Part shown: in pieces, positions 1-49,581 of the stretch | Position numbering within the stretch: the stretch's first letter is position 1 | Layout of the letters: each line of letters opens with the position of its first letter | From: a virus | Virus record (IMG/VR): IMGVR_UViG_3300026382_000026 | Coordinates: 1 to 49,581 of that record | DNA length: 49,581 bases | Reading direction: 5' to 3' (one strand) | Notes under the pieces: generated by a model | Seen by the model: only the letters and a program-made list of their open reading frames with translations | Database searches by the model: none | What the model was told of the DNA's origin: nothing | Program-made: the position numbers and the translations under genes

Positions 1-56
1 CTTCTAATTTTAATTAAAAATCCCTTTTGTTCTAATTCTTTTTTAAGTTTTTCCAT
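1..56 (-). CDS. 5' end of the annealing-like protein gene (duplicate of 49455..49510)
   Basis: This is a partial copy produced by the terminal repeat. It begins with the ATG at 54..56 and runs off the left edge of the window. The complete gene is at 48788..49510. In the circular molecule the two are the same sequence. Confidence 0.9.
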   Translation of the reverse strand, partial: MEKLKKELEQKGFLIKIR

Positions 57-90
57 TTTTTGATTGTTTTTAAAATATAAAAGTGTTTTT

Positions 91-118
91 ATTATATTCA
101 GATTATTTTCTTTGTCAA
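91..118 (-). promoter_or_regulatory. Early-type sigma70-like promoter (copy of 49545..49572)
   Basis: Read on the minus strand it is TTGACA (113..118), a 16-bp spacer, then TATAAT (91..96). Both hexamers are perfect consensus. It fires toward lower coordinates and, across the circular junction, into the gene at 48788..49510. The same architecture recurs at least seven more times in the genome. Confidence 0.85.
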
Positions 119-128
119 GTTTTTTTTC

Positions 129-1136
129 TTATTTTTTATCTTCTACTTCTTGTATTTTGAAAACTCACTTAAATCATCAAACTTCTACATAGCATATACC
201 ATCTCAAACTTTTAATACAAGTTCACTATCTTTATCTAAAAAGTTTAATATCTTGCTTAAAACTTCTCAACCAATATACACTGGCTTATTACAATTTACT
301 TCTCATTTTATTACTTTCTTAAAATTTAATGCCTTTTTTTTCGTTCACATTTCTATTGTCTTTTCTGGCTCTATTAAGATATTCCCATTCTCTTCTTTTA
401 TAACAAAAATAGGTAAAGCAACTTTTACTATTTTTTTTATAAAATTTCTCACTTTTAATAAATCTTTTGCTTCTATTCTATACTCTCACTTTATCTCATT
501 GTTAAAAAAATTTTCATATTCTGGAAAAATTGCTTCATTGATAAATCAAACAAATATATCTCATCAATTTTTTACATAAAATTTATCATCTTTTACTCAC
601 ACTTTCTCTGTTTTGTCAAATATCCTCATTAATTGTTTTAATCATCTTATCCCCAAAATATAATTTCACTTCCAGTTTAAATCATAATCTTTATACATCA
701 ATAAAAATCAGTCTGTTGCCACTAGTCTTAATTTTCAATTAACCTCCTGAAAATAAATTCAAGTAAAAACTAAATTTATTCAATTTTCATCTGCTACATT
801 ACATAGTCTATTTATATCATCATAAATCAAACTTAAATCCACATCAAAATATTTTACTAATTCATCATTTACTTCAAATATACTATTCACAACTCACTTT
901 TTTATTCTAAACTCATCATTTAATTGTTTAATAACTAAATACCCACCTTCATCTAAAAATTTCGCATCATCTTCCACATAACTTAATACTTCCTTCAAAA
1001 TTCTTCAATACGATCAATCAGGCAAATTTAATTCCAATAAAACCATTTCATCTCATTTTCATACAATATAAGCTTTTCAATTTTTAACTTTTAGTAAATC
1101 CGTTAAACTAAAAGCTTTTACTACTTTCTGTTTCAT
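129..1136 (-). CDS. dnaN: DnaN-like DNA polymerase sliding clamp
   Basis: 335 residues in code 25. Beta clamps are ring-shaped dimers that encircle DNA and tether polymerase and repair enzymes. The middle of the protein carries the typical run INRLCNVADENGINL followed by GKLRLVATDGFLLM (the clamp ATDG signature), and a later FPEYENFF segment matches the conserved FP-D/E-Y region. Length is slightly below bacterial DnaN (about 360-380), and the C-terminal tail is divergent. It starts at the ATG after an A-rich leader, with a promoter at 1170..1197, and ends just short of the next promoter. No phage polymerase was found, so this clamp probably acts with the host replicase. The fold assignment is from motifs read by eye; the partner is inferred. 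Confidence 0.82.
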
Positions 1137-1167: not shown

Positions 1168-1659
1168 TTATTTTAATAAATTCAATTTCTTTGTCAAGAC
1201 TTTTTCAATTTTTTTATTCCTAAATCTTCTATTATCCAAAATAAATTTTATCAATTTAACTTCATCTACAACTTTTCACTTATAAAGGTAATCTAATATT
1301 TCCTCATCAAAAACTTTAAAAGTATACAAGTAATGCATCTTATATTCTTTTCAATTCCACTCATCTAACTTTTTCAAAATTTCCATACTTTTCCTAAACT
1401 TCTTATCCTTCTTATACAAATAGTCATCAATTATTTGTCTAATCAATCATCTATAACTAAACTTATATTTTTCTTTACTCCTCTTCACTGCCTCTTTATC
1501 TCTATGCTCCATCTTATATCTACTTTCACACTTACAACAATAACTATTATAGTAAACCTTTCATTTATAGTATCTCTTATGAAAGTGATTTAAAGTTAAC
1601 CACTTACCACAAATTTTACATTGTTTCTTATTTCATTTTATTTTACTTTTTCTTGGCAT
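1168..1659 (-). CDS. Small C4 zinc-finger protein, function unknown
   Basis: 163 residues, rich in Lys and Tyr. The N-terminus has CKICGKWLTLNHFHK and then CCKC about 20 residues on, a CxxC...CxxC zinc knuckle. It resembles the knuckle that precedes HNH endonuclease domains in many phage proteins, but no HNH motif follows, so nuclease activity cannot be claimed. Its last codons contain the TTGACA and TAAAAT hexamers of the promoter for the downstream clamp gene, so promoter and coding sequence are superimposed. It probably belongs to the operon starting at 3143. Confidence 0.75.
1170..1197 (-). promoter_or_regulatory. Promoter for the sliding-clamp gene
   Basis: Minus-strand TTGACA (1192..1197), 16-bp spacer, TAAAAT (1170..1175). 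It is a weaker -10 variant of the genome's repeated promoter and lies within the 3' end of the upstream zinc-protein gene. Transcription enters the clamp ORF about 35 bp downstream. Confidence 0.65.
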
Positions 1660-2147: not shown

Positions 2148-3083
2148 TTAAAAACTTGGTATCTCATTTTTCTTTGCCTTTATAAACTCTGATCTTGCTG
2201 CTTGTATAAGTGTAGCAAGTTCATAGTATATCTTTTTAGGTCAGGATATTTTAGGAGCATAATATTCATTTTGACTCACTATCTCTAGTAGCATTCTAAA
2301 CCAATCTTGCCACCTATATTGTCAACTACTAACTGCTTTTACTTTCTTTATTTTGTTTAAAAGAAGTTTTCAATAATATCTTTGCTCTTTTTGAGTTCCA
2401 TCTATAACACCATCATTAAATTCTTTTATAATCTCCAAAAGCTCATTTATCTCTGGATTTCCATATTCTTTCTTTTTATTTCTTACTTCTTTTATCACAT
2501 TTTTTTGATTTGTCAAGTCCGCGGCGGCTTCTTTTAAATTTTCTTGCTCTATTTTTATAATAGGTTCTGTTAAAATTTTAGACGAAGTTTTTTTTGAAAA
2601 AGTAGCACTTTGTGTCTCATCTTTATAAGATGAGATATTATTCTTTTTATTATTCTCTTTTATATTATTCTTTTTTATCTCATTATTTGATGAGGTGTGG
2701 AATTCATTATTTGATGAGGTGGTGAATTCATTATTTGATGAGGTGGAGGTTGATGAGATGGGGATCTCATTATTTAATGAGGTGGAGGCTAAAAATATTT
2801 TTCTTATCTTTCATCATCATACTACCGAATATGTTTCTCTTCTTATTAAACCAACCTTTTCTAATTTACTTAAAGCATTATCTATACTTCATTTACTTGC
2901 TCTTAAAATTTTTGCTAATTGCTCACTTTTGAAATAAAATCATTTATTTTTCGTTTTATTGTAAAATCTTATAAATCCATATACTAATCACTCTAAAGGT
3001 GTAAGTTTATACCTTTCTACCTCCTCAAGATAAAAAGGTATAAATTCTGGGCTAAATATTACCTTATCGTTTGTCAATTCCAT
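2148..3083 (-). CDS. Probable replication initiator / DnaD-like winged-helix protein
   Basis: 311 residues. Residues 1-100 look like a winged helix-turn-helix: FSPEFIPFYLEEVERYKLTPLEG, then a recognition region RASKGSIDNALSKLEKVGLIRRE as in phage replisome organisers. Residues ~101-200 are a low-complexity linker with near-perfect octapeptide repeats (TSSNNEF-type). The C-terminal 110 residues are helical (EINELLEIIKEFNDGV, QYRWQDWFRMLLEIV) and resemble the partner-binding tail of DnaD-type proteins. The start at 3081..3083 was chosen because the ATG five bases upstream is in another frame and soon stops. It has its own consensus promoter at 3116..3143. With the clamp nearby it plausibly loads the host replisome; that role is inferred. 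Confidence 0.65.
2678..2790. repeat. 24-bp imperfect tandem repeat inside the initiator-like gene
   Basis: A unit of about 24 bp containing TCATTATTTGATGAGGTG is repeated three times nearly perfectly and then about twice in degenerate form. The period is a multiple of three, so it encodes an Asn/Ser/Thr octapeptide repeat in the linker of the protein. Repeat-rich DNA inside an initiator gene can also act as an origin (iteron), but nothing here proves it. Confidence 0.85.
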
Positions 3084-3986: not shown

Positions 3987-4007
3987 AGAGGAGTTAATAA
4001 CTCCTCT
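3987..4007 (-). terminator. Rho-independent terminator after the phosphoesterase gene
   Basis: A 9-bp inverted repeat (AGAGGAGTT / AACTCCTCT, 3-base loop) begins at the stop codon of the upstream gene, and the minus-strand transcript continues with CTTTTTATTTT. This closes the long late transcription unit. Confidence 0.85.
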
Positions 4008-4989
4008 AATCAAATGCTATAAATTTAGTTAGTATTTCTGTTTTATCTCATTTTTTCTTTAAATTAACAATCCATCATCAAATAGTATTTCATAATTTAT
4101 ATCTTTTAGCAAGTAGATTTTCTCTCAAAAAAGCACCTGGCAAAAAACTATGTATTCATCTATACATTAAATAAAGACTATCGTGATAATGTCACAATAT
4201 AAAAATATCAGGATCGTCTCATTTATTATAGTTCTCTAAATATTTCTGCAATTTATAACTTTTCGCATAGGCTTGACTTCATCATCAATGCTGCAAATCA
4301 ATAATAAATCAATTTAATATAATTCTTCAATTGTAAAATCACAAATATTCTAAATCTTTTCTTAAATTACTTATAAGATTTGCTATATTTATTCCCACTT
4401 TCTTTAGCCAACTTTCATCGTGATTTCATAAAATATAGTAAGTTTTTCAGTTTTTTAATTTAGGATAATGTTTTTTTATTACTTCAATTTGTTCTTCTAA
4501 ACTATGTTCTTTTAACTCAAAAACTTGTCATTTATAAACATCAATTCAATCTGTCAAATCTCATCAATGTAAAATCGTTTTTACTCACTCATTTTCTGCT
4601 ATTTCATAAAATCTTCGTAATTCTTCAATAGCACATAGTTTATTTCCTAAATGTGTATCACTTATTATTCCAATAACTATTTCTTTATCATCTCATAAGT
4701 TTATCTTTTTACTTCATCAACTCTTTAATTCCTTCCACTCTAGCAATTCTCTTAAATTTTTTAAATTTAATCATTTTTTTCTTAAAAATTTTAGTAGTTT
4801 TTTTTCTTCTTTATTAATTTCTTCTTCTTTTAATTCTTTTCATTTTCTAAACCAATATCAAGCTTGTCTTTCAGACAAAACTATTCATAACTCTTTTTGT
4901 ATTAAGATTTTAAATTGCTCTATTGTTTTTATATCTTCTTTTTTTAGTAAATCCAAAATTTGTCTCTTTTCAGAGTTATTTAATTTCAT
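4006..4989 (-). CDS. Calcineurin-like metallophosphoesterase with N-terminal HTH-like extension
   Basis: 327 residues. The metallophosphoesterase core shows all blocks in order: DTH (111-113), HGGD (141-144), GNHD (188-191), a histidine at 234 and GHYHD (266-270), the residues that bind two metal ions. Several of these glycines are UGA. Residues 1-100 form an extra helical region containing VLSERQAGYWFRKGK, which looks like a helix-turn-helix. Phage members include nucleases of the SbcD type and phosphodiesterases; the substrate cannot be told here. The gene stands alone between two strong terminators (5019..5043 upstream, 3987..4007 downstream), so its expression may depend on read-through or on a promoter I could not identify. 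Confidence 0.88.
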
Positions 4990-26210: not shown

Positions 26211-27665
26211 TTATAAAAGTGCTTCTTTTTCTGCTTCCTTTTCTGCTAAATCCTTTGCTCTATTTAACAACTCACTTATTTTTTGTATTTCATTATCTAC
26301 TTTTCATAATAACGCTTCTTTTTGTTTCGTCTCTTCTTCAGACAATTCTTTTACACTTATAAGCATCTGTCATAATCTCACAAAATTTTCCTCTGCTCCT
26401 GCTAAAGGTTCTCATTTCTCATCTACTAAAATATCTAATCACATCATTTGTCTTGCTTCATTTATACTTATCACTCACTTATCTATCAATTTATTTATCA
26501 CTTCTGAAATATTTGTCAAATCTCTAAAATCTGGGCTATTAGCCACAAGTTTAGCATTTATTCAAAAATCTTCTCTAATCATTGTTGTAAAAATCTTACA
26601 TATTTTCTTTTGTAAAGGCACTATTTCTTTTTCATAAAACTTCTTTTCTTGCTCTATACTATTAGCTCTATTAGCATCTTCCACAATTCACAACATTATT
26701 GGTGGGACTCCAAAAGCTACGATTACTTCTTTATCAACTTTATCTAAAAGCTCCAAATAACTTCATTCCCTTATACTATCTCATATCTTTTGTATCTTTA
26801 CCTCTCATTGACTTGTATGTATAACTGGTATAGCATTCCATTTCCTATCTCTTCTTAAATCTTCCAAATAATGTTTTAAAGTTTCTATACTCTCTTTTGT
26901 TAAGGGTGCTCATTGAACCACAATAGCAAATTTATTCAAAAATCAACTTTCAAACTCTGAAATATTAAACTCTTCAATATATTTTCTGATTAAATAACTT
27001 TTTAATAAAGTTATAGATGGACTCAATCAATACCACAAATTTCAAGGATTTGGTAATTTTAACCATATAACCTCATTAGTAGGCAATCACATTTTTTCAT
27101 TTAAATCTGGATCGTATCAATTATCTTTCGTTCTATCTTCTGCTCTTGGTAAATATCTATTATACCAAATATACTCCTCTCAAATCTCATCAATCACCTG
27201 TATAAATCTTTGTCAAGTTCTAAAATTTTTTCAATCTCATCTAGCAACTCTTATCGTATCGATAGGAATATGATACAACTCTTGCACTTCTCACGTTATA
27301 GGATTTCTTACTACTTCAATAGCAGCATTTCAAGTAGTGTAAAGGTCAATAATTACATCATAAATTATCTCCTCAAATGTTTTTTCTGGATTACAATTTT
27401 CAAAAAAATCTTTTACTCTTTCCAAATCTTCATCTCTTACTTCTCAATCTGCCACAACACTATATCAATGAAGAGTAGCATTTTTCGCTATTAACTCAAT
27501 ACTCTTATTAGCATAAGTATTAATCTCATAAATTTTTATCAAATCTCTAAAACTATAAGGTGGTTCTATATACAAATCTTTTATTCAAGAAAATTTATTT
27601 TTTGTCCTTTCTATCGCTACACTTGAAGTATCAACCTTTATTAAATCTACATTTACTCACTTCAT
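26211..27665 (-). CDS. Portal protein
   Basis: 484 residues. Landmarks: IYEINTYANKSIELIAKNA near residue 50, LYTTGNAAIEVVRNPITGEVQELYHIPIDTIRV, EVIWLKLPNPGNLWYGLSPSITLLKSYL and KEVIVAFGVPPIMLGIVEDANRANSIEQEKKFYEKEIVPLQ, all in portal order. The C-terminal 40 residues form a coiled coil. The dodecameric portal is the DNA gate of the head. The ATG overlaps the epimerase stop by 13 bp. Confidence 0.93.
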
Positions 27666-28666
27666 AGCATTCTATTTAACTTATAAAAATTTTTCAACTG
27701 ATTAAATACATTTTCTAAATCTAATTTCAATTTTCTATTAAATACTCTCTTTATTTTTGTTATATCACACCAATATTTTTCTAAATCTCACTCCCTCCTC
27801 TCTACAAATTTATACTCAACATCTCATACAATTTCAATAAATTTATTTACAATCTCTAACACACTTATAGGCTGTCAAGTTCATAAATTATATTCTCATC
27901 TTTTCTTTTTAACCTCTGGTAAAACATCTAAATGAAATTTTACCAACTCATTTACATCTACATAATCTCTTAAAGCAGTTCAATCTGGTGTTTCATAATC
28001 ACTTCCAAAAATTCTAAACACTTTCTTATTTAAATAAGCATCAAACAAAGCAGGTATAATATTACTCTTTCAATAATCTCACAATATTCATCTTGCTCAT
28101 ATCGGATTTCAATATCTAAACACATAATAAGATAAATCATACCTCTTACAAATTCTACTTATCTCAGTATCACTTACATACTTTGTATATCAATAAATAT
28201 TTTCTGGGGCTTCATTTAAATCTTCCTCTTTTAATTTTCATTCTTTTCAATAAGCAGCTATACTACTTGAAAAAATAAAAGGCACTCTCAACTTTATTGC
28301 CAACTTTAACATATTGTGTGTTCATATTATATTTACATTCATATACTTTATCGGTTCTTTTTCTCATTCTTCCACACTTTTCAAGGCAGCAAAATGAAAA
28401 ATAGCTTCCACGTTACTATCTCCCTCATTTACTAACAATATCTTTTCAATCTCTTTTTCATTAGTTACATCAATATCATAAAATTGCATTTGTCATACTC
28501 ATCATCACATCTTCTTATAAAAATATTTTAACACCTTTTCATAAATAATTTTAGAATACACACTCATATTATCAACTACAACCACTCTATATCATCTTTC
28601 CATAGCTTCATCTGTTAAAATACTACCTATATATCATAATCATCAAGTTACTATTATCGTCTTCAT
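27653..28666 (-). CDS. galE: GalE-like NAD-dependent UDP-sugar 4-epimerase
   Basis: 337 residues, extended SDR family. Residues 8-15 are GGLGYIGS (NAD-binding GxxGxxG), S133-135 the catalytic Ser region, Y158xxxK162 the catalytic pair (IYGYTK), then FRYGNPIGARG and GTALRDYVDVNELVKFH, GTGQPISVLEIV, the UDP-sugar-binding part. Three of four N-terminal glycines are UGA. It interconverts UDP-glucose/galactose or the GlcNAc/GalNAc pair. Position between terminase and portal, with 13-bp overlap into the portal gene, is unusual; it must be expressed late. A metabolic role in decorating virion or cell surface is inferred. Confidence 0.9.
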
Positions 28667-32749: not shown

Positions 32750-34282
32750 CTAAATATCATTTATATCTAATTCTTTTCTCTCTAATTTTTCTTTCGTGCT
32801 ATTTCATAAACACACTTTCCGCATATCTCTTATCTCTTTTAAAGTCTTTCAATAATACGGGTTTTCAAAAATTGGTAACGGATTTTTTCATATATCTTTT
32901 GCTCATATACATTTTGCTGCCTTATATAATTGAAATTGACTTAATGATTGTGACTTCAATCTTGATGCTAATTCAAATGTCTTACTTATCTTCTTCATAG
33001 TAGCTATAAGTTTTGCCCGTTCTATTTGCTTTTCTTTTCTCAAAACCTTAAAAGCGTCTTTCACTAATTGTATATTTCATCTTCACAATTTTGTAGCATC
33101 ATTCTCTTTCTCTACTACCTCCTGAAAATAATTCCTATACTTCATAGCAACAACTTTTACATCATATTCATCTTTTATATACTTTCTCATAAACTCTGTC
33201 TTTTCTCGTGCTTCCTCATAATTTTCTATAATCCATCTTAACATTGCTCTTGCCTCATCTATATTCTTATAAATAAACGGATATTCTTTTGGTATCCAAC
33301 TTCTAACCCGATCATAATCAGGAAAAACTAAAATCACTCACGCATACAACATCTCCATATATCATACTGGAAAACCTTCTGTCTTACTAGCTACTAATCA
33401 AACGTGACATTTAGTGGCTTTCTTTAAATAATCTTCTCTTCATTGATTTTCAAAAATTTTAGCAAAATCTAGCCTTTTTAAACTTTCAGATACACTTTTC
33501 TGATTTCAAATAGCTCATCAAGTAGTTATCCAAACATCTACATCATATCAACCAGCTTTTATATAAAAATATTCATTAAAAATTATATCTGTCTTCTTTC
33601 AATCATTTATTCTTCCTCAATAATAAAGCGTTTTAACCTGTCTCTTCCCTTCTAATCAAACTTTTATCTTATCTATATACTCTGTATCTACTCATAAAGG
33701 CAATACCTTTGCTTTTTTAAGAAACTCATCTAATACACTTCACCTAAAATATTTAGTTAATTGTCTTAAAGCCGCCATTTTCTCGTGTTCTCATAAAAAA
33801 ATCGGATAACCTAAAATATATCAAAAATTATAAAGAATATATCACACTGGGTTTATTTTCTCCTCTCTCTCCTCCCAAACTTTTTGCTCTAAAATAAAAA
33901 TTGGTATATCTTGATACTGACTTCTTAAATCTACTATTCATCTCTTCATAGAATACACAATTTCTGGACTATGAACAAAAACACAATCTATCGGATACAA
34001 TCAAAACATTTGATTAAAATACGAAGCAAACTCCTTAAAATCAAAATTAAATACATAATTATAAAAATCAAACTTAAACACTTCTTGCTCTACATATGAA
34101 ACTTTCCACTCTAATCATCTTTTTTCCATTCTTTTTCTTATCGCTTGCATTATCTCACTATCTGAAAACCAATAAAAAAAATCTTCTTCTGGTGTATAAG
34201 CTACGAGATCTTCCATCGCTAAATATCAACTATTAGAATTCAACCTCTTTAATCACACAAGTGGCACATTTACTATTCTCAT
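32750..34282 (-). CDS. Glycosyltransferase, GT-B (GT1/GT4-like)
   Basis: 510 residues. The N-terminal half is a Rossmann-like acceptor domain. From residue ~200 come VLPLGVDTEYIDKI, LYYGGRINDGKKTDIIFNEY and, near 295, HVGLVASKTEGFPVGYMEMLYAGVILVFPDY: the EGFP-E-AG line is the donor-sugar E(x7)E region of GT-B enzymes. The last 110 residues are extra helices. It transfers a sugar to an unknown acceptor (virion protein, DNA or surface). Co-transcribed with small early genes behind the promoter at 35368..35395. Confidence 0.85.
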
Positions 34283-35417: not shown

Positions 35418-36206
35418 TTAAAATAAAGATAGCTGTTTAATAATTCTCTTCTTACCATCATCTTTTGTAGTATAATTAACATCTATCTTATCTTCTTTCA
35501 CTTGTATTTTATCTGTCATTATTCTTTTATTAAAAAATCCTCTTTTGTTGTAATAACTTATAGTTCAATTAAATAAAAGCTTGTCTGTAATATCAATTAT
35601 ATAAGGCACCTGTATACTTCATAAAAGCGGCATTGTAGCTAATACCTTAAAAACTTTTCAAGTTAAACTATTTCAGTTAAATACTATTCAAGTTAATCAA
35701 TGTAGTTGCAAATTTATAGCTGTCATTAAAAAACATCTTTCGTCTATATCTACTGCCATAAATAACACATCTTTTTTCCTATCCTTTAACATCTTACCCG
35801 CTAATAATAGCATTCTTCAACTACCACTTGCTGGATCTGATATTGTGATCTTCTTTCCTTTCTCTACTTCTCATAAAGTTATCCTTGTCATAAATTCTAC
35901 TACATTGTAAGGAGTAAAAAATTGTCAATGTTCTCAATGAGTTATATACTGCTCATATATACTTCATAGTATATCATAATACTGATTTTCTTCCTGTAAT
36001 TCTATAAACTTATTTAAAGCTTCTCATAAAATCTTACCTTCCTCTGCTGTATAACTATCTAACACTTTCTTATATTCTTCTATTTTTGCTCCTGATAAAA
36101 ACCAAACAATTCATTTTAACCAATCTTCAAATACTTTATGAAAACTTCTTTTAGTTGCTACTCTTTCAAGTATTTTTACTATCTCTTTTTCTACTCCTCT
36201 ATTCAT
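35418..36206 (-). CDS. HsdM-like N6-adenine DNA methylase, divergent, with clamp-binding tail
   Basis: 262 residues. SAM motif I at 124-130 (SDPASGSGRMLL), preceded by the type I signature GQFFTPYNVVEFM (94-106) and followed by DIDERCFLMTAINLQLHGL and a GNSLT line. The catalytic N/D-PP-Y/F motif is not visible in the last 85 residues, so activity is doubtful, or the motif has diverged. The protein ends in QLSLF (258-262), the consensus sliding-clamp-binding peptide. Modification would protect phage DNA or block host function. Located between a terminator and promoter 35368..35395. Confidence 0.82.
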
Positions 36207-43037: not shown

Positions 43038-45644
43038 TTATTCTTCCACAATCAAACTTAAAGGTTGTCAAAAACCTAAAAATTGCGGTATATGTCACTC
43101 TATAATAATACTTTTATTATACTTTATACTCAAATCAAGATTTTCTAAATCTGTTACTAATCACTCAAAAAATAAATTTCAATCAATATATAACTTGATC
43201 TCTCTATTAAACTTATACCCAGTATGTCAAATATTATTTAAAATAATCTTTTTTAAAATTCATCTTCAATAATGTTCTAGAAGTTTACCCCAAAGAATAT
43301 ATCTTTTAAAAGTCTTATCTGTATAATCCAACTCGTCAGTTAAACAATAAAACTCTGGCACTTGCTTACCGAATAACAAAACATTATTTGATCCATAAGC
43401 TAACCCTATTCTATTTACAACCATTTCTCAAGTATCATAATGTCTTATCTGTAAGTGTTGATTAAAAGATACATCAAGAGTAAATTTATACTTTTCATTA
43501 ACAATAAATACATTATTATCATTATAATCTCACCTATATCTTGGTGGATTTCAAGTATAATCATACCAATATAAATCACATACTCTTTTCCATCAGTTTA
43601 CAGCTTCTAAAGCATTTTCAAATAATCTACTATCACCATATTTTAAATATAAAACTCATCTCTCATCGTCACTACAAATAAATCAAGTCTGATAATCATC
43701 AAACCGTCAATTAATTTCAGTTGCCATAGTTAATTGATAATCTATTACATTTCATAACTCATCAAGTATAATCCCTCACCAATAATCTCAACCATTAACT
43801 GACCATACATTTTTATCCTTATAAAATACATTATTAGAAATTGCCGTTATTTCTGTTTCATACCATTTAAAATCATTATTATAATCAGCTCATCTTCAAT
43901 TTCGTATTCTAATAAAATACCTCTTTTTCTTTTTATTATAATATACTCAACTAGGTATAATTCTTCTTATTGCTACATCAAGTGGCACACTCATAGCAAC
44001 ATCTCTTTTTATTCTTCTTTCAAAAGAAATTTCTTCATCTGGAATAGTTAATTGTTTCACAATAGTATTACTAAAAGGGTCATAGTGTATAATATTTATA
44101 AAAGGATACCTATAATATCCATCCCACATCTTAGGCACAAAAATTAAATTTCAATTTTCATCTTGTGGTATGTTTTGTCATTCAGTCCACATATTTGGCG
44201 GCAAATATATAACTCATTTTTGTTTTCAATCTTTACTTTTCCAGTATAAATTCATAGAAACTCATACTGCTCATCTATTTACCCATACAATTCTTCAAGT
44301 TTTTGTCATATAAACTCAATTAGGAAGCGAAGAATATCATAAATTTTTTCTTAAAACTTCTACTTTAACATCATAATAAGCAGGATCTCCTGCAGACTTC
44401 ACTTCAATTGTAAATAAAAGAGGCCTATCTCTAAATTCGCCATCTTGAAAAGCATCATTACTACTAGAAGCTTGATTAACCAAATATCCATTTCAACTTC
44501 TTAAAGGACATCTTAATACTTCTATTTTATTTGTAGAAAGTATTCTATAAGAAAAATAACTTCTCTGTAATCTATATAATAGTTGCGTATATATATTACT
44601 TCAATCTCTTACTAAAAAAGTAATATTTCCTCAACTATTATAATAAGCACCTCAAAAAACAATTATTATATTTTTATTAGGATTAGCAGGATCATCAGGA
44701 TCAGGCATTATTACGTGTTTAACATTAAAATGACTACCTGAAGGACTATATCTATTATCGTTAGGCACTTGATATAACTGAACCAAACTATTATTACTAT
44801 CTATTCTATACATATAAGCATTATCATTATCATTATTGTTTGGGTGTGCTATTATATACAAATAATCATCATCTGTCTTTTCTCAAATTGACCGAATTGT
44901 AAAATATCAATTTGTTCAAACTACATCGTGCCAATTATTATCAGTTTCATCAAAATAAATTAATTTATTTTCTGTTGAACTCCATCTATTATTTCATCTC
45001 TTCACAATAAACAAATAAATTCTTCAAAACTTTTCAAATATACTTAATCAATAATTATAATCTGAATTATAGGTATCCTTATCCATAAAAGGAATATTTA
45101 TTTCTTCCCAAGTATTATCTGACTTTTTTCTCCTCCATAAAACATATTGTCTACTTTTATACGCGTCTCTATGTCTTGGAATAAGATAATATACATAGTC
45201 TGTAGTTTCTTGAACTTCCATACCTTTATAATCCATAAAATTTACAGTTAATCTACTATTCCTTATTTTAATCGTATCATTTTCCAATCAAACAAGAAAA
45301 TCATCAGGATAATCAATAGGATTTACATAAGTATTATTATCTCTATCAAACTCCCAATGTTTGTAATGATTGTTATTAAAAAAATTCTTTAAATCTAAAG
45401 GATTATAACTACCTCAATAATTGTCATCATCCATCAAAAGAGTTTGCGGATAATAATATATCCTATCTTCATACACAGTTTCTTCTCGTGTTCTTCAATT
45501 GTCATCATCAGAATTTTTTCATCTTACTAAATCAGAAAAATCTATATCAAAATTTCACACTACACTTCTTTTTTCAGTCAATAATTTAAATGGCTTCTTT
45601 ATAACATTTCAGGTTTGTCAACCTACCAAAACATTTACTGACAT
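43038..45644 (-). CDS. Large virion-like / fibre-like protein, 868 aa
   Basis: A single frame with UGA glycines, rich in Trp, Tyr and Asn. It contains repeated beta-sheet-like segments with YYxxWGI, ENLxNVYFT-like turns, e.g. LIPRHRDAYKSRQYVLWRRKKSDNTWEEINIPF and WSVNGGDYWGGIILDELGNVIDYQ. No signal peptide. It resembles a beta-propeller or fibre protein by repeat style, but I cannot name a family. It is upstream of the early genes and downstream of PIG-L and WbqC genes, a long way from the tail module. Confidence 0.6.
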
Positions 45645-45662: not shown

Positions 45663-46295
45663 TTAAAATTTTAACATTCTTAATAATCTAAACTGCTCTC
45701 AATATTTCTCTCACCATCAATATCAACAATACAGAGCATATTCAATTATTCACTTCTCATTTGCCCAACTTTCATTATTATACTGACTTTTATATTTCTT
45801 AAAAGCTTCTATTTTCTTCTTCAAATGTTTTTCTTCTAAAAATTCAACTACATTCGGGATCCATCATTCAGGATACCATATCAATGGTGGATATCAATAC
45901 TCATAAACTTCTGGAACATTATACCTCTTCTTTAAACTTATCCTCAAGGCTGTTAAAGCAACTTTATTTACTATCTCGTGATCCTGATGAACCGATTTAG
46001 CTGGAATATACACTTTATGAGGCTTAAAATTATTTATCTCTTTATCAATTTTATTTACCATCAATCAATATTCTATAGTATACAATTTAGTATCCATTCA
46101 AGGAAATAAAGGTTTTTCATATGATGCTCATAACACTTTCATTGCCTCATAAAACTCTTTTTCTCTTATATCATTCTCTGGAGTAGTAAATAAAAGCACT
46201 CTTATATCATTTCAATCTTCCACATATTTAGCAATAGTTCAACCCATTCAAAGAGTTTCATCATCTGCGTGTGGTGTCAATACTAATATTCTCAT
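45663..46295 (-). CDS. PIG-L / LmbE-family deacetylase
   Basis: 210 residues. The zinc site is complete: PHADDE at 8-13 and SVHQDH at 101-106. The family removes N-acetyl groups from GlcNAc-type sugars, including activated or lipid-linked forms. Together with a WbqC-like gene upstream it suggests synthesis or alteration of a sugar. Target not readable. Just 18 bp upstream of the large fibre-like gene. Confidence 0.9.
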
Positions 46296-46360
46296 CTTCT
46301 TTTGATTTTAAACAAATAAAAAATTTTTTCAAGTTCTATTTTTTTTTATATAAACCTAAC
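46296..46360 (-). other. 65-bp gap without recognised signal
   Basis: AT-rich spacer between the WbqC-like and PIG-L genes. On the minus strand it has TTGAAA and, 18 bp later, AAAAT; this is a poor promoter match, so I call nothing. Confidence 0.3.
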
Positions 46361-47329
46361 TTATATTGTTATTATTCATTTAAATCTAATTCAAGACAAA
46401 CAATATAACTGAAATCACTCTAAAACTTTATAAAGATTTCAAAAATCCTGTAAAATATAATCTAAACTACTTAATCAAGGTATAAAATACTTATATTCCT
46501 TTTGTTTATAAGGCAAAAACTCAAAATCATATACTAAAATAGGAGGCATATACTTTACAGCATCATCTTTAACCATATACTCAAAAGTTCAAAAATTAGA
46601 ATTAACAAACACAACTCTTCTTTTCATAAAATCAACCCGCTCTTCAAAACTAGCTCACTTTTTATTTAATAATTCTACTTCATTTTCTATCTCAACTATA
46701 TTAGGATTTTCTACTCACATTCAATAAGTCTTCCTAAATATGTTTTCAAAATTATACTCTGTTATATTCCTCATATCTTTCAAAATATTTATAAGCAATG
46801 TAACTAATTTATAAGTCTTCTTTCACTCCTTCTCATAATCACTGCTTTTTACAAACTCAATATAAAACCAATCTCTTAAAATAAACTCATTAACATCTGA
46901 CAAATATTGTCAACTATCAATAAATTTTATTAATTTCTCTAATAAAACTGAATACTTAATATTGTAGTATCTAGGCAGTATATCTAAATTGTGTCAAATT
47001 ACTAACTTCTCATTTATTGGCTCTATCTTATCTTTGTTTTTTAGTTTTAATCAAATCTCTATGATATTTTTCTTATCTCTTATCTTATTTTTTTCTACTC
47101 GTGTTCATCTCTCAAACTGGTAATCATCAAGACTAATAAATAAATCACTGATATATATTTTTGCCATATATTTAGCCCACGGAAAAAAATGCGGTTGGTG
47201 AGCACTTATTATTAATCTATCTCATCTTAAAGTCTCTAACATAATCTTTTGAAATTCTTTACTGTCTGGTGTATAAAATTTCATATTATCTGGCAAGTAA
47301 AATTCACTACCTTTATATAATACTATCAT
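46361..47329 (-). CDS. WbqC-like protein
   Basis: 322 residues. Residues 40-90, LIISAHQPHFFPWAKYMAKIYISDLFISLDDYQFERGTRVEKNKIRD, fit the WbqC family line (iHQPnYfPwlgyf.Ki..sDvfi.lDdvqf.r....RnkI). WbqC proteins are found in O-antigen and glycan gene clusters with no proven biochemistry. The start overlaps the upstream gene's stop by 7 bp. Confidence 0.85.
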
Positions 47330-48787: not shown

Positions 48788-49510
48788 CTAAAAAGGTATT
48801 TCTTCTTCCTCTACTGGTTTATCTAATCCTTTTAAACTATTATTTACTGGTTTATTAAAATCTTCCTTTAATTTTTCAATTGCTTTATCTTGTGTAAATC
48901 ACTCTTTTAATAATTCATTTATTCTTTTCTGTTCTTCATAGCTTAACGCTACTCAATATTTCTTTTTAGAATAATCATACACTTTTTTACTTATTCCTTC
49001 TCAACTTATATCACTTTTATATTCTTCATTTACCGCATTATCAAGAGATTGTTTCTCTTTTAAATTTACCTTACTTGTTTCCGCTTCTTGTGTAGCATCA
49101 ATAATTTCATCAGCTGTTACCGCCCCTCAAAACTCTATCCCATATCAAAGATAACTTAATGCCTTACCAAGAGCTATTGACTGACACTTTTCTAAAGCTT
49201 TTATATTATCTACTATCTCTCCCTTTTTATTTTTTAATTTCTTTTTCACTTCAGCTATACCTATACTCTGTATATCTCTTCAATCTCTTTCAACTTTTAA
49301 AATTGCTTTCACTATAACGCTTTCTTCATCATTTTTTAAAATCTCAAAATCTATTAATCTTATATCTTGCTTCGCTAAATAAATTTTTCACTCTACCTTT
49401 AAATAATAATTTTCTTTCGTTTCCCACTCTCACGTTTGTTCATTAAAGAAAGCACTTCTAATTTTAATTAAAAATCCCTTTTGTTCTAATTCTTTTTTAA
49501 GTTTTTCCAT
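48788..49510 (-). CDS. Putative single-strand annealing / ssDNA-binding protein with SSB-like tail
   Basis: 240 residues. The core IGIAEVKKK...ALEKCQSIALGKALSYLGYGIEFGGAVTADEI matches in shape the Rad52/ERF/DdrA-like annealing proteins of phages (LEkaeTsAiGRALa.lGYG...asaeEi). The last nine residues are PVEEEEIPF, like the acidic tip of SSB proteins (DDIPF) that recruits repair enzymes. A linker of ~70 residues separates the two. It is first gene behind the promoter at 49545..49572. Exact family uncertain. Confidence 0.68.
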
Positions 49511-49581
49511 TTTTTGATTGTTTTTAAAATATAAAAGTGTTTTTATTATATTCAGATTATTTTCTTTGTCAAGTTTTTTTT
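49455..49581. repeat. Direct terminal repeat, right copy
   Basis: Identical over all 127 bases to 1..127. Collapsing one copy gives a circle of 49,454 bp and makes the annealing-like gene and its promoter continuous. Confidence 0.95.
49545..49572 (-). promoter_or_regulatory. Early-type promoter for the annealing-protein operon
   Basis: Minus-strand TTGACA (49567..49572), 16-bp spacer, TATAAT (49545..49550); it is the right-hand copy of the promoter at 91..118. It starts the operon of genes running down to about 43,038. Confidence 0.88.

What the first reader, a model, noticed from the sequence alone, without database searches (positions are those of the whole stretch)
129..1136. Phage encodes a sliding clamp but no polymerase
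A DnaN-like clamp is present while no polymerase, helicase, primase or clamp loader was recognised in 66 genes. A phage-specific clamp could capture the host replicase and exclude host repair partners. This would be an unusual replication strategy, possibly linked to the minimal replisome of the host.
Basis: partly seen in the sequence, partly recalled or inferred. Interest (0 to 1): 0.7.

Follow-up and report, generated by a model that had tools for sequence, protein, structure and literature searches.

The report
Phage sliding clamp with eroded pocket
This bacterial virus carries its own copy of the ring that holds DNA-copying enzymes on DNA but no copying enzyme of its own, which turns out to be common; what is odd is that the ring has lost most of the standard docking site that its partners are known to use.

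Summary
The clamp is real. It lies at 129-1136 on the MINUS strand and is open only when TGA is read through (here as Gly, code 25). HMMs, a solved relative and an AlphaFold model (pLDDT 81; best Z 26.1) say DnaN-type sliding clamp. The genome looks complete (127-bp terminal repeat); no family A, B or C polymerase or DnaB was found. A clamp without a polymerase is not unusual: 42 of 45 other clamp-carrying viral contigs had no A/B/C polymerase, and annotated phages show the same layout. What is unusual is the clamp itself: the longest branch of 52 clamps compared, 5 of 17 canonical peptide-pocket residues, none of the four pocket arginines, no C-terminal Met-Pro-x-Arg. A Mycobacterium abscessus prophage clamp, also without a polymerase, is similarly eroded. 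Most likely it is a phage-dedicated clamp with altered partner choice; a decoy or hybrid-ring role is possible. Function is untested. Side finding: a methylase-like protein of this phage lacks the catalytic motif and ends in QLSLF, a consensus clamp-binding peptide, as do many relatives in other phages.

The parts
129..1136 (-). DnaN-type sliding clamp, 335 aa, code 25 (24 in-frame TGA)
699..716 (-). residues T141-L146, TDGFLL, counterpart of TDGHRL in the peptide pocket (R176 is Leu)
144..158 (-). residues K327-V331, KIQEV, counterpart of the C-terminal MPMRL pocket segment
   Evidence: model residues 330-333 end where solved clamps end
1168..1659 (-). endonuclease VII / HNH-like protein directly upstream of the clamp
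   Evidence: phrog_1035 E 2.5e-6, phrog_2340 E 1.1e-5
2148..3083 (-). replication-initiation protein (winged-helix, O-like / DnaD-like)
   Evidence: phrog_270 E 8.5e-10; O-like phrog_345 E 1e-5; DnaD-like phrog_186 E 7e-5; HTH_36 E 3e-4
48788..49510 (-). next gene after the clamp across the circle (its start corresponds to position 56 of the left repeat copy, about 72 bp from the clamp stop); possible ssDNA-binding or annealing protein (my reading) ending EEEEIPF, resembling an SSB tip (recalled)
   Evidence: sequence, adjacency; only phrog_11717 (unknown function) E 9e-5
35418..36206 (-). N6-methylase-like protein without an NPP[YFW] motif
   Evidence: PF02384 E 1.4e-15 over profile positions 3-121 of 311; phrog_5696 E 1.6e-42
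35421..35435 (-). its C-terminal QLSLF, consensus beta-clamp-binding peptide
   Evidence: the only such C-terminus among 69 selected ORFs of the window
1..127 (.). left copy of the 127-bp direct terminal repeat (circular, probably complete assembly)
49455..49581 (.). right copy of the 127-bp direct terminal repeat

Best explanation
The gene encodes a strongly diverged DnaN-type sliding clamp of a tailed phage that uses genetic code 25 (host probably in the Absconditabacteria or Gracilibacteria). Shown by computation: the fold, the gene neighbourhood, the absence of a recognisable polymerase or DnaB, and the loss of most canonical pocket residues. Inferred: the phage's O/DnaD-like initiator opens its origin and brings in the host helicase and replicase; the phage clamp serves that fork or its recombination step; its changed pocket selects different partners or contacts from those of the host clamp. 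The general arrangement, clamp without polymerase, is common in phages.
For: Fold: AF2 pLDDT 81, pTM 0.83; Foldseek best hits are bacterial clamps, E 2.4e-17; best Z 26.1 over 321 residues. Independent sequence evidence. Position in an initiator - endonuclease - clamp run, with a possible ssDNA-binding gene next across the circle. Host clamps were found in 135 of 145 genomes of the candidate host class, so the phage does not supply a missing part. Clamp-only is usual: 42 of 45. Pocket: window 5 of 17 canonical residues and 0 of 4 basic sites; candidate hosts 9 to 11 of 17, with R176 19/19 and P363 19/19.
Against: No experiment, no expression data, and no close relative of the clamp was found, so selection on the pocket could not be measured. 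The clamp loader's delta subunit uses the same pocket (PMC11139829), so loading by the host is not assured. The first 40 residues of the model average pLDDT 61-63 per block and residues 263-273 are below 50. Single-sequence folding failed (pLDDT 32), so the good model leans on an alignment of clamps.
Confidence: 0.5

Rival explanations
1. Ordinary processivity clamp: despite the sequence changes the pocket still binds the host replicase and clamp loader, and the phage simply supplies extra clamp.
For: Other phage clamps are also diverged at the pocket yet keep R176 and P363 (10 of 11 annotated phage clamps each); the T172, G174, L177, P242 and V360 equivalents are retained; the window's N and F at the R246 and V247 sites are also the commonest residues there in candidate hosts.
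Against: R176, H175, M362, P363, M364, R365, N320 and Y323 equivalents are all changed; only prophiGD11-2 is as eroded.
Confidence: 0.22
2. Decoy or poison: the clamp is a takeover protein that forms inactive or mixed rings with host subunits, or blocks the loader, and so slows host replication.
For: Pocket loss would make an inert ring. A phage clamp (Waterfoul gp48) was listed as inhibiting mycobacterial growth on overexpression (PMC9339283, passages). Twort Gp168 is a known, unrelated phage protein that disables the host clamp (PMC11139829, passages).
Against: It sits in the replication gene run rather than among small takeover genes. The Waterfoul authors relate such toxicity to replisome stoichiometry, and that phage has its own primase/polymerase.
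Confidence: 0.18
3. Relic: a captured clamp gene that no longer functions and is drifting.
For: By far the longest branch of 52 clamps, 2.85 against 1.61 for the next; no close relatives were found in viral contigs or in the phage collection.
Against: An intact 335-codon frame in a compact genome; all three domains are still predicted; conserved Gly and FPxY motifs remain.
Confidence: 0.08

Closest known systems
Bacterial beta sliding clamp (DnaN; PF00712/PF02767/PF02768, TIGR00663)
   Same: three-domain clamp fold over 321 residues, FPxY and TDG motifs
   Different: 335 aa against about 370, below the Pfam and NCBIfam cut-offs, 5 of 17 pocket residues, C-terminal KIQEV instead of MPMRL
Phage-borne DnaN clamps (phrog_947), e.g. 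Rhizobium RR1-A, Arthrobacter Seahorse, M. abscessus prophiGD11-2
   Same: clamp in a genome with no annotated DNA polymerase (for RR1-A the 38 kb viewed, for Seahorse the 36 kb viewed)
   Different: RR1-A and Seahorse keep R176 and the Met-Pro; prophiGD11-2 has a comparable pocket loss
T4 gp45 clamp
   Same: phage-encoded sliding clamp
   Different: trimeric (PMC11139829, passage); recalled: works with a phage polymerase and a phage loader; not compared here by sequence
Twort Gp168
   Same: phage protein acting on the host clamp pathway
   Different: binds the host clamp's DNA channel; not itself a clamp (PMC11139829, passages)

Membership tests
DnaN-type sliding clamp | three-domain clamp fold | tested here: met
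   AF2 model pLDDT 81; PDB matches are clamps, best Z 26.1
DnaN-type sliding clamp | significant sequence similarity to DnaN families | tested here: met
   phrog_947 6.8e-8, TIGR00663 9e-12, 1vpk 2e-8
Equivalog dnaN (TIGR00663) / Pfam PF02767 | reaches the curated cut-off | tested here: not met
   PF02767 25.3 of 27 bits; TIGR00663 44.6 of 137.65 bits, so not filed as the equivalog dnaN; the fold-level claim stands
Canonical beta clamp | canonical peptide-binding pocket | tested here: not met
   5 of 17 residues, 0 of 4 basic sites
DnaN-type sliding clamp | dimeric ring around DNA, loader-dependent | not testable with these tools
   no complex prediction or assay available
Phage replication module with own polymerase or helicase | family A, B or C polymerase or DnaB in the genome | tested here: not met
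   PF00476, PF00136, PF07733 and PF03796 without match
Initiator-driven, host-dependent replication (O/DnaD type) | replication-initiation protein | tested here: met
   phrog_270 8.5e-10 and related families for 2148-3083; activity not tested
N6 adenine DNA methylase (35418-36206) | catalytic motif IV NPP[YF] (recalled) | tested here: not met
   absent from the sequence; Pfam match stops at profile position 121 of 311

The most novel reading that the evidence does not exclude
Some polymerase-less phages, in unrelated hosts, have converged on sliding clamps with the universal docking pocket erased. Such a clamp could make hybrid rings with host subunits, leaving one usable arm that holds the host replicase but cannot serve as a tool-belt for repair or translesion proteins, or could be loaded without the host loader. 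In this phage a clamp-binding peptide on a dead methylase would meanwhile dock on the intact host clamp.
Probability: 0.1. Interest if true: 0.75.

Novelty: new variant of a known kind. Interest (0 to 1): 0.42.

Why it matters
All known clamp partners bind one conserved pocket (PMC11139829, passages), which is why it is studied as a drug target. A working clamp without that pocket would show how a ring can be loaded and used differently, and how a phage redirects a host fork without bringing a polymerase. The survey also corrects the expectation: in the sample tested, phages that carry a bacterial-type clamp usually have no polymerase, so the clamp alone looks like a common way of steering host replication.

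Tried and rejected
Code 4 (Trp) and TAG=Q were tried; TAG=Q opens little, and Gly is preferred over Trp for TGA. Close relatives of the clamp were sought in viral contigs (none; three distant loci; none) and in annotated phages (none). Capsid and terminase queries found relatives of 25-36% identity, all reading mainly in the standard code; phrog_947 was not found in those 7 records, nor in the 5 methylase-bearing phage records searched with them. The portal query found none. Direct search of host genomes with the phage clamp matched 69 of 353, at about 20-29% identity, so no close host donor was seen. The tree does not resolve its origin. Single-sequence folding failed. The 868-aa protein 43038-45644 has no useful match. 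The metallophosphoesterase 4006-4989 resembles the phosphoesterase part of the archaeal polymerase D small subunit (45.9 bits against a cut-off of 445); it is not a polymerase by itself. An early PF00712 search of the window's own record gave no match: the N-terminal clamp domain is too diverged for that model.

Selection effects: the 80 loci were picked by the TDGHRLA-type motif, so R176 and H175 there are conserved by design; the 11 annotated phage clamps and 19 host clamps were not picked by that motif. I gave 45 of the 69 loci with a DnaN ORF to the polymerase searches, leaving out mostly shorter contigs; records may be fragments or carry host DNA. One annotated record (Acinetobacter MD-2021a) proved to be a dnaA-dnaN-recF host stretch and was not used, so the 182 records overstate true phage clamps. 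One truncated host sequence (L071) was dropped. The regex for NPP[YFW] had no positive control. Literature searches were made; no paper on a clamp with an erased pocket or on clamp-binding dead methylases appeared in the listings, which is not proof of absence.

Full report
Observation. Under the standard code nothing is open at 129-1136 on the clamp's frame. The clamp is on the minus strand and contains 24 in-frame TGA codons. Stop-free stretches of at least 150 codons cover 79% of the window with TGA as sense and 1% with table 11. Reading TGA as Gly fits: at the TGA positions the aligned clamps hold 308 Gly and 1 Trp among 1234 letters. Code 25 is the code of Absconditabacteria and Gracilibacteria (PMC10746230, passages). 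No tRNA gene was found in the window. The ends share a 127-bp direct repeat, so the assembly is circular and probably complete.

Clamp identity. The protein matches phrog_947 (E 6.8e-8), PF02767 just under its cut-off, TIGR00663 well under its cut-off and 1vpk (E 2.1e-8). PF00712, the N-terminal domain model, gave no match. Folding the single sequence failed. With 52 viral clamps in the alignment the model reached pLDDT 81 and pTM 0.83; the PDB chains listed are bacterial clamps or their complexes, best Z 26.1, rmsd 2.7 A over 321 residues.

Replication genes. PF00476, PF07733, PF00136 and PF03796 have no match in the window's record. PHROGs and Pfam scans covered 38 proteins (30 by PHROGs, 30 by Pfam, overlapping), including every minus-strand ORF of 153 aa or more in my gene list; smaller ones were mostly not scanned. 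A replication-initiation protein is present at 2148-3083. Downstream of it in transcription order come small ORFs, an endonuclease VII-like gene, the clamp, and, across the circle about 72 bp further, the 48788-49510 gene. So the phage has an initiator and a clamp and must rely on host helicase, primase, loader and polymerase, as far as homology can tell.

Is clamp without polymerase unusual? No. A Gracilibacteria-class DnaN query matched 182 of 50,697 phage records, some of them host contamination. prophiGD11-2 (64 features, no annotated polymerase, helicase or primase; no match to PF07733, PF00476, PF00136 or PF03796), RR1-A (38 kb viewed) and Seahorse (36 kb viewed) have clamps without an annotated polymerase; Rhizobium 16-3 does carry a 'DNA polymerase/primase'. 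Among 45 IMG/VR contigs with a clamp, PF00476 matched 2, PF07733 1 and PF00136 0, leaving 42 without any. DnaB_C matched 11 of 47 records in the enlarged set, and neither the window nor prophiGD11-2.

What is unusual. Mapping the pocket residues listed in PMC11139829 (Val344, which that review calls unconserved, left out), the window clamp keeps 5 of 17: T172, G174, L177, P242 and V360 equivalents. It has no basic residue at the four arginine sites. Eleven annotated phage clamps keep 5 to 17; 10 of 11 keep R176 and 10 of 11 keep P363. Nineteen clamps from the candidate host class keep 9 to 11, with R176 and P363 in 19 of 19. prophiGD11-2 is the only other clamp with 5. Against this reading, the window's N and F at the R246 and V247 sites are also the commonest residues there in candidate hosts, and the alignment is at about 20% identity, so single positions may be misplaced. 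The window clamp has the longest branch of 52 (2.85, next 1.61), and its origin is unresolved.

Mechanism. Best supported: a phage-dedicated clamp in an initiator-driven, host-dependent replication scheme, with changed partner choice. The rivals are an ordinary clamp, a decoy and a relic. Overexpression of another phage clamp (Waterfoul gp48) was listed as toxic to mycobacteria (PMC9339283, passages). MabR prophages of M. abscessus are described as sharing a sliding clamp among genes likely expressed in lysogeny (PMC9434293, passage). Neither passage tests mechanism.

Side finding. Gene 35418-36206 matches the first 121 of 311 positions of N6_Mtase, lacks NPP[YFW] and ends in QLSLF, identical to a consensus peptide shown to bind beta clamps (PMC4549789, passages). 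A pattern search gave 80 loci of this kind; 80 of 80 lacked the motif. Of 59 non-redundant members with a closed end, 18 end in a clamp-binding-like peptide, against 11 of 630 other ORFs in the same loci; one of the 18 (L153) is a truncated frame and may not count. In 9 of 12 inspected loci that do not end so, a nearby gene on the same strand does, directly downstream or overlapping in 8 and 372 bp away in one.

Noticed in passing
35418-36206 (-): Methylase-like phage protein family (phrog_5696-like) without motif IV that often ends in a beta-clamp-binding peptide; 18 of 59 non-redundant IMG/VR members against 11 of 630 control ORFs.
   Followed up: partly
L100, L113, L114, L117, L136, L145, L146, L151, L152: Where the methylase-like protein lacks the peptide, a neighbouring PcfK-like (name recalled) gene on the same strand carries it, e.g. 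QMDMFSMMGM or QLSLFDMMGV.
   Followed up: partly
L093:2981-4129: The clamp of M. abscessus prophage prophiGD11-2 also has an eroded pocket (TDRYIV, C-terminal LIGIRG) and the prophage has no recognised polymerase.
   Followed up: partly
48788-49510 (-): Protein of unknown family ending EEEEIPF, resembling the tip of SSB proteins (recalled), next to the clamp across the circle.
   Followed up: no
4006-4989 (-): Calcineurin-like phosphoesterase with weak similarity to the small subunit of archaeal polymerase D.
   Followed up: no
27653-28666, 32750-34282, 45663-47329 (-): Epimerase, glycosyltransferase, PIG-L deacetylase and WbqC-like genes, suggesting modification of surface sugars.
   Followed up: no
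L055-L074: Candidate-host DnaN proteins have Ser in place of Gly in the TDG motif (TDS), 19 of 19.
   Followed up: no
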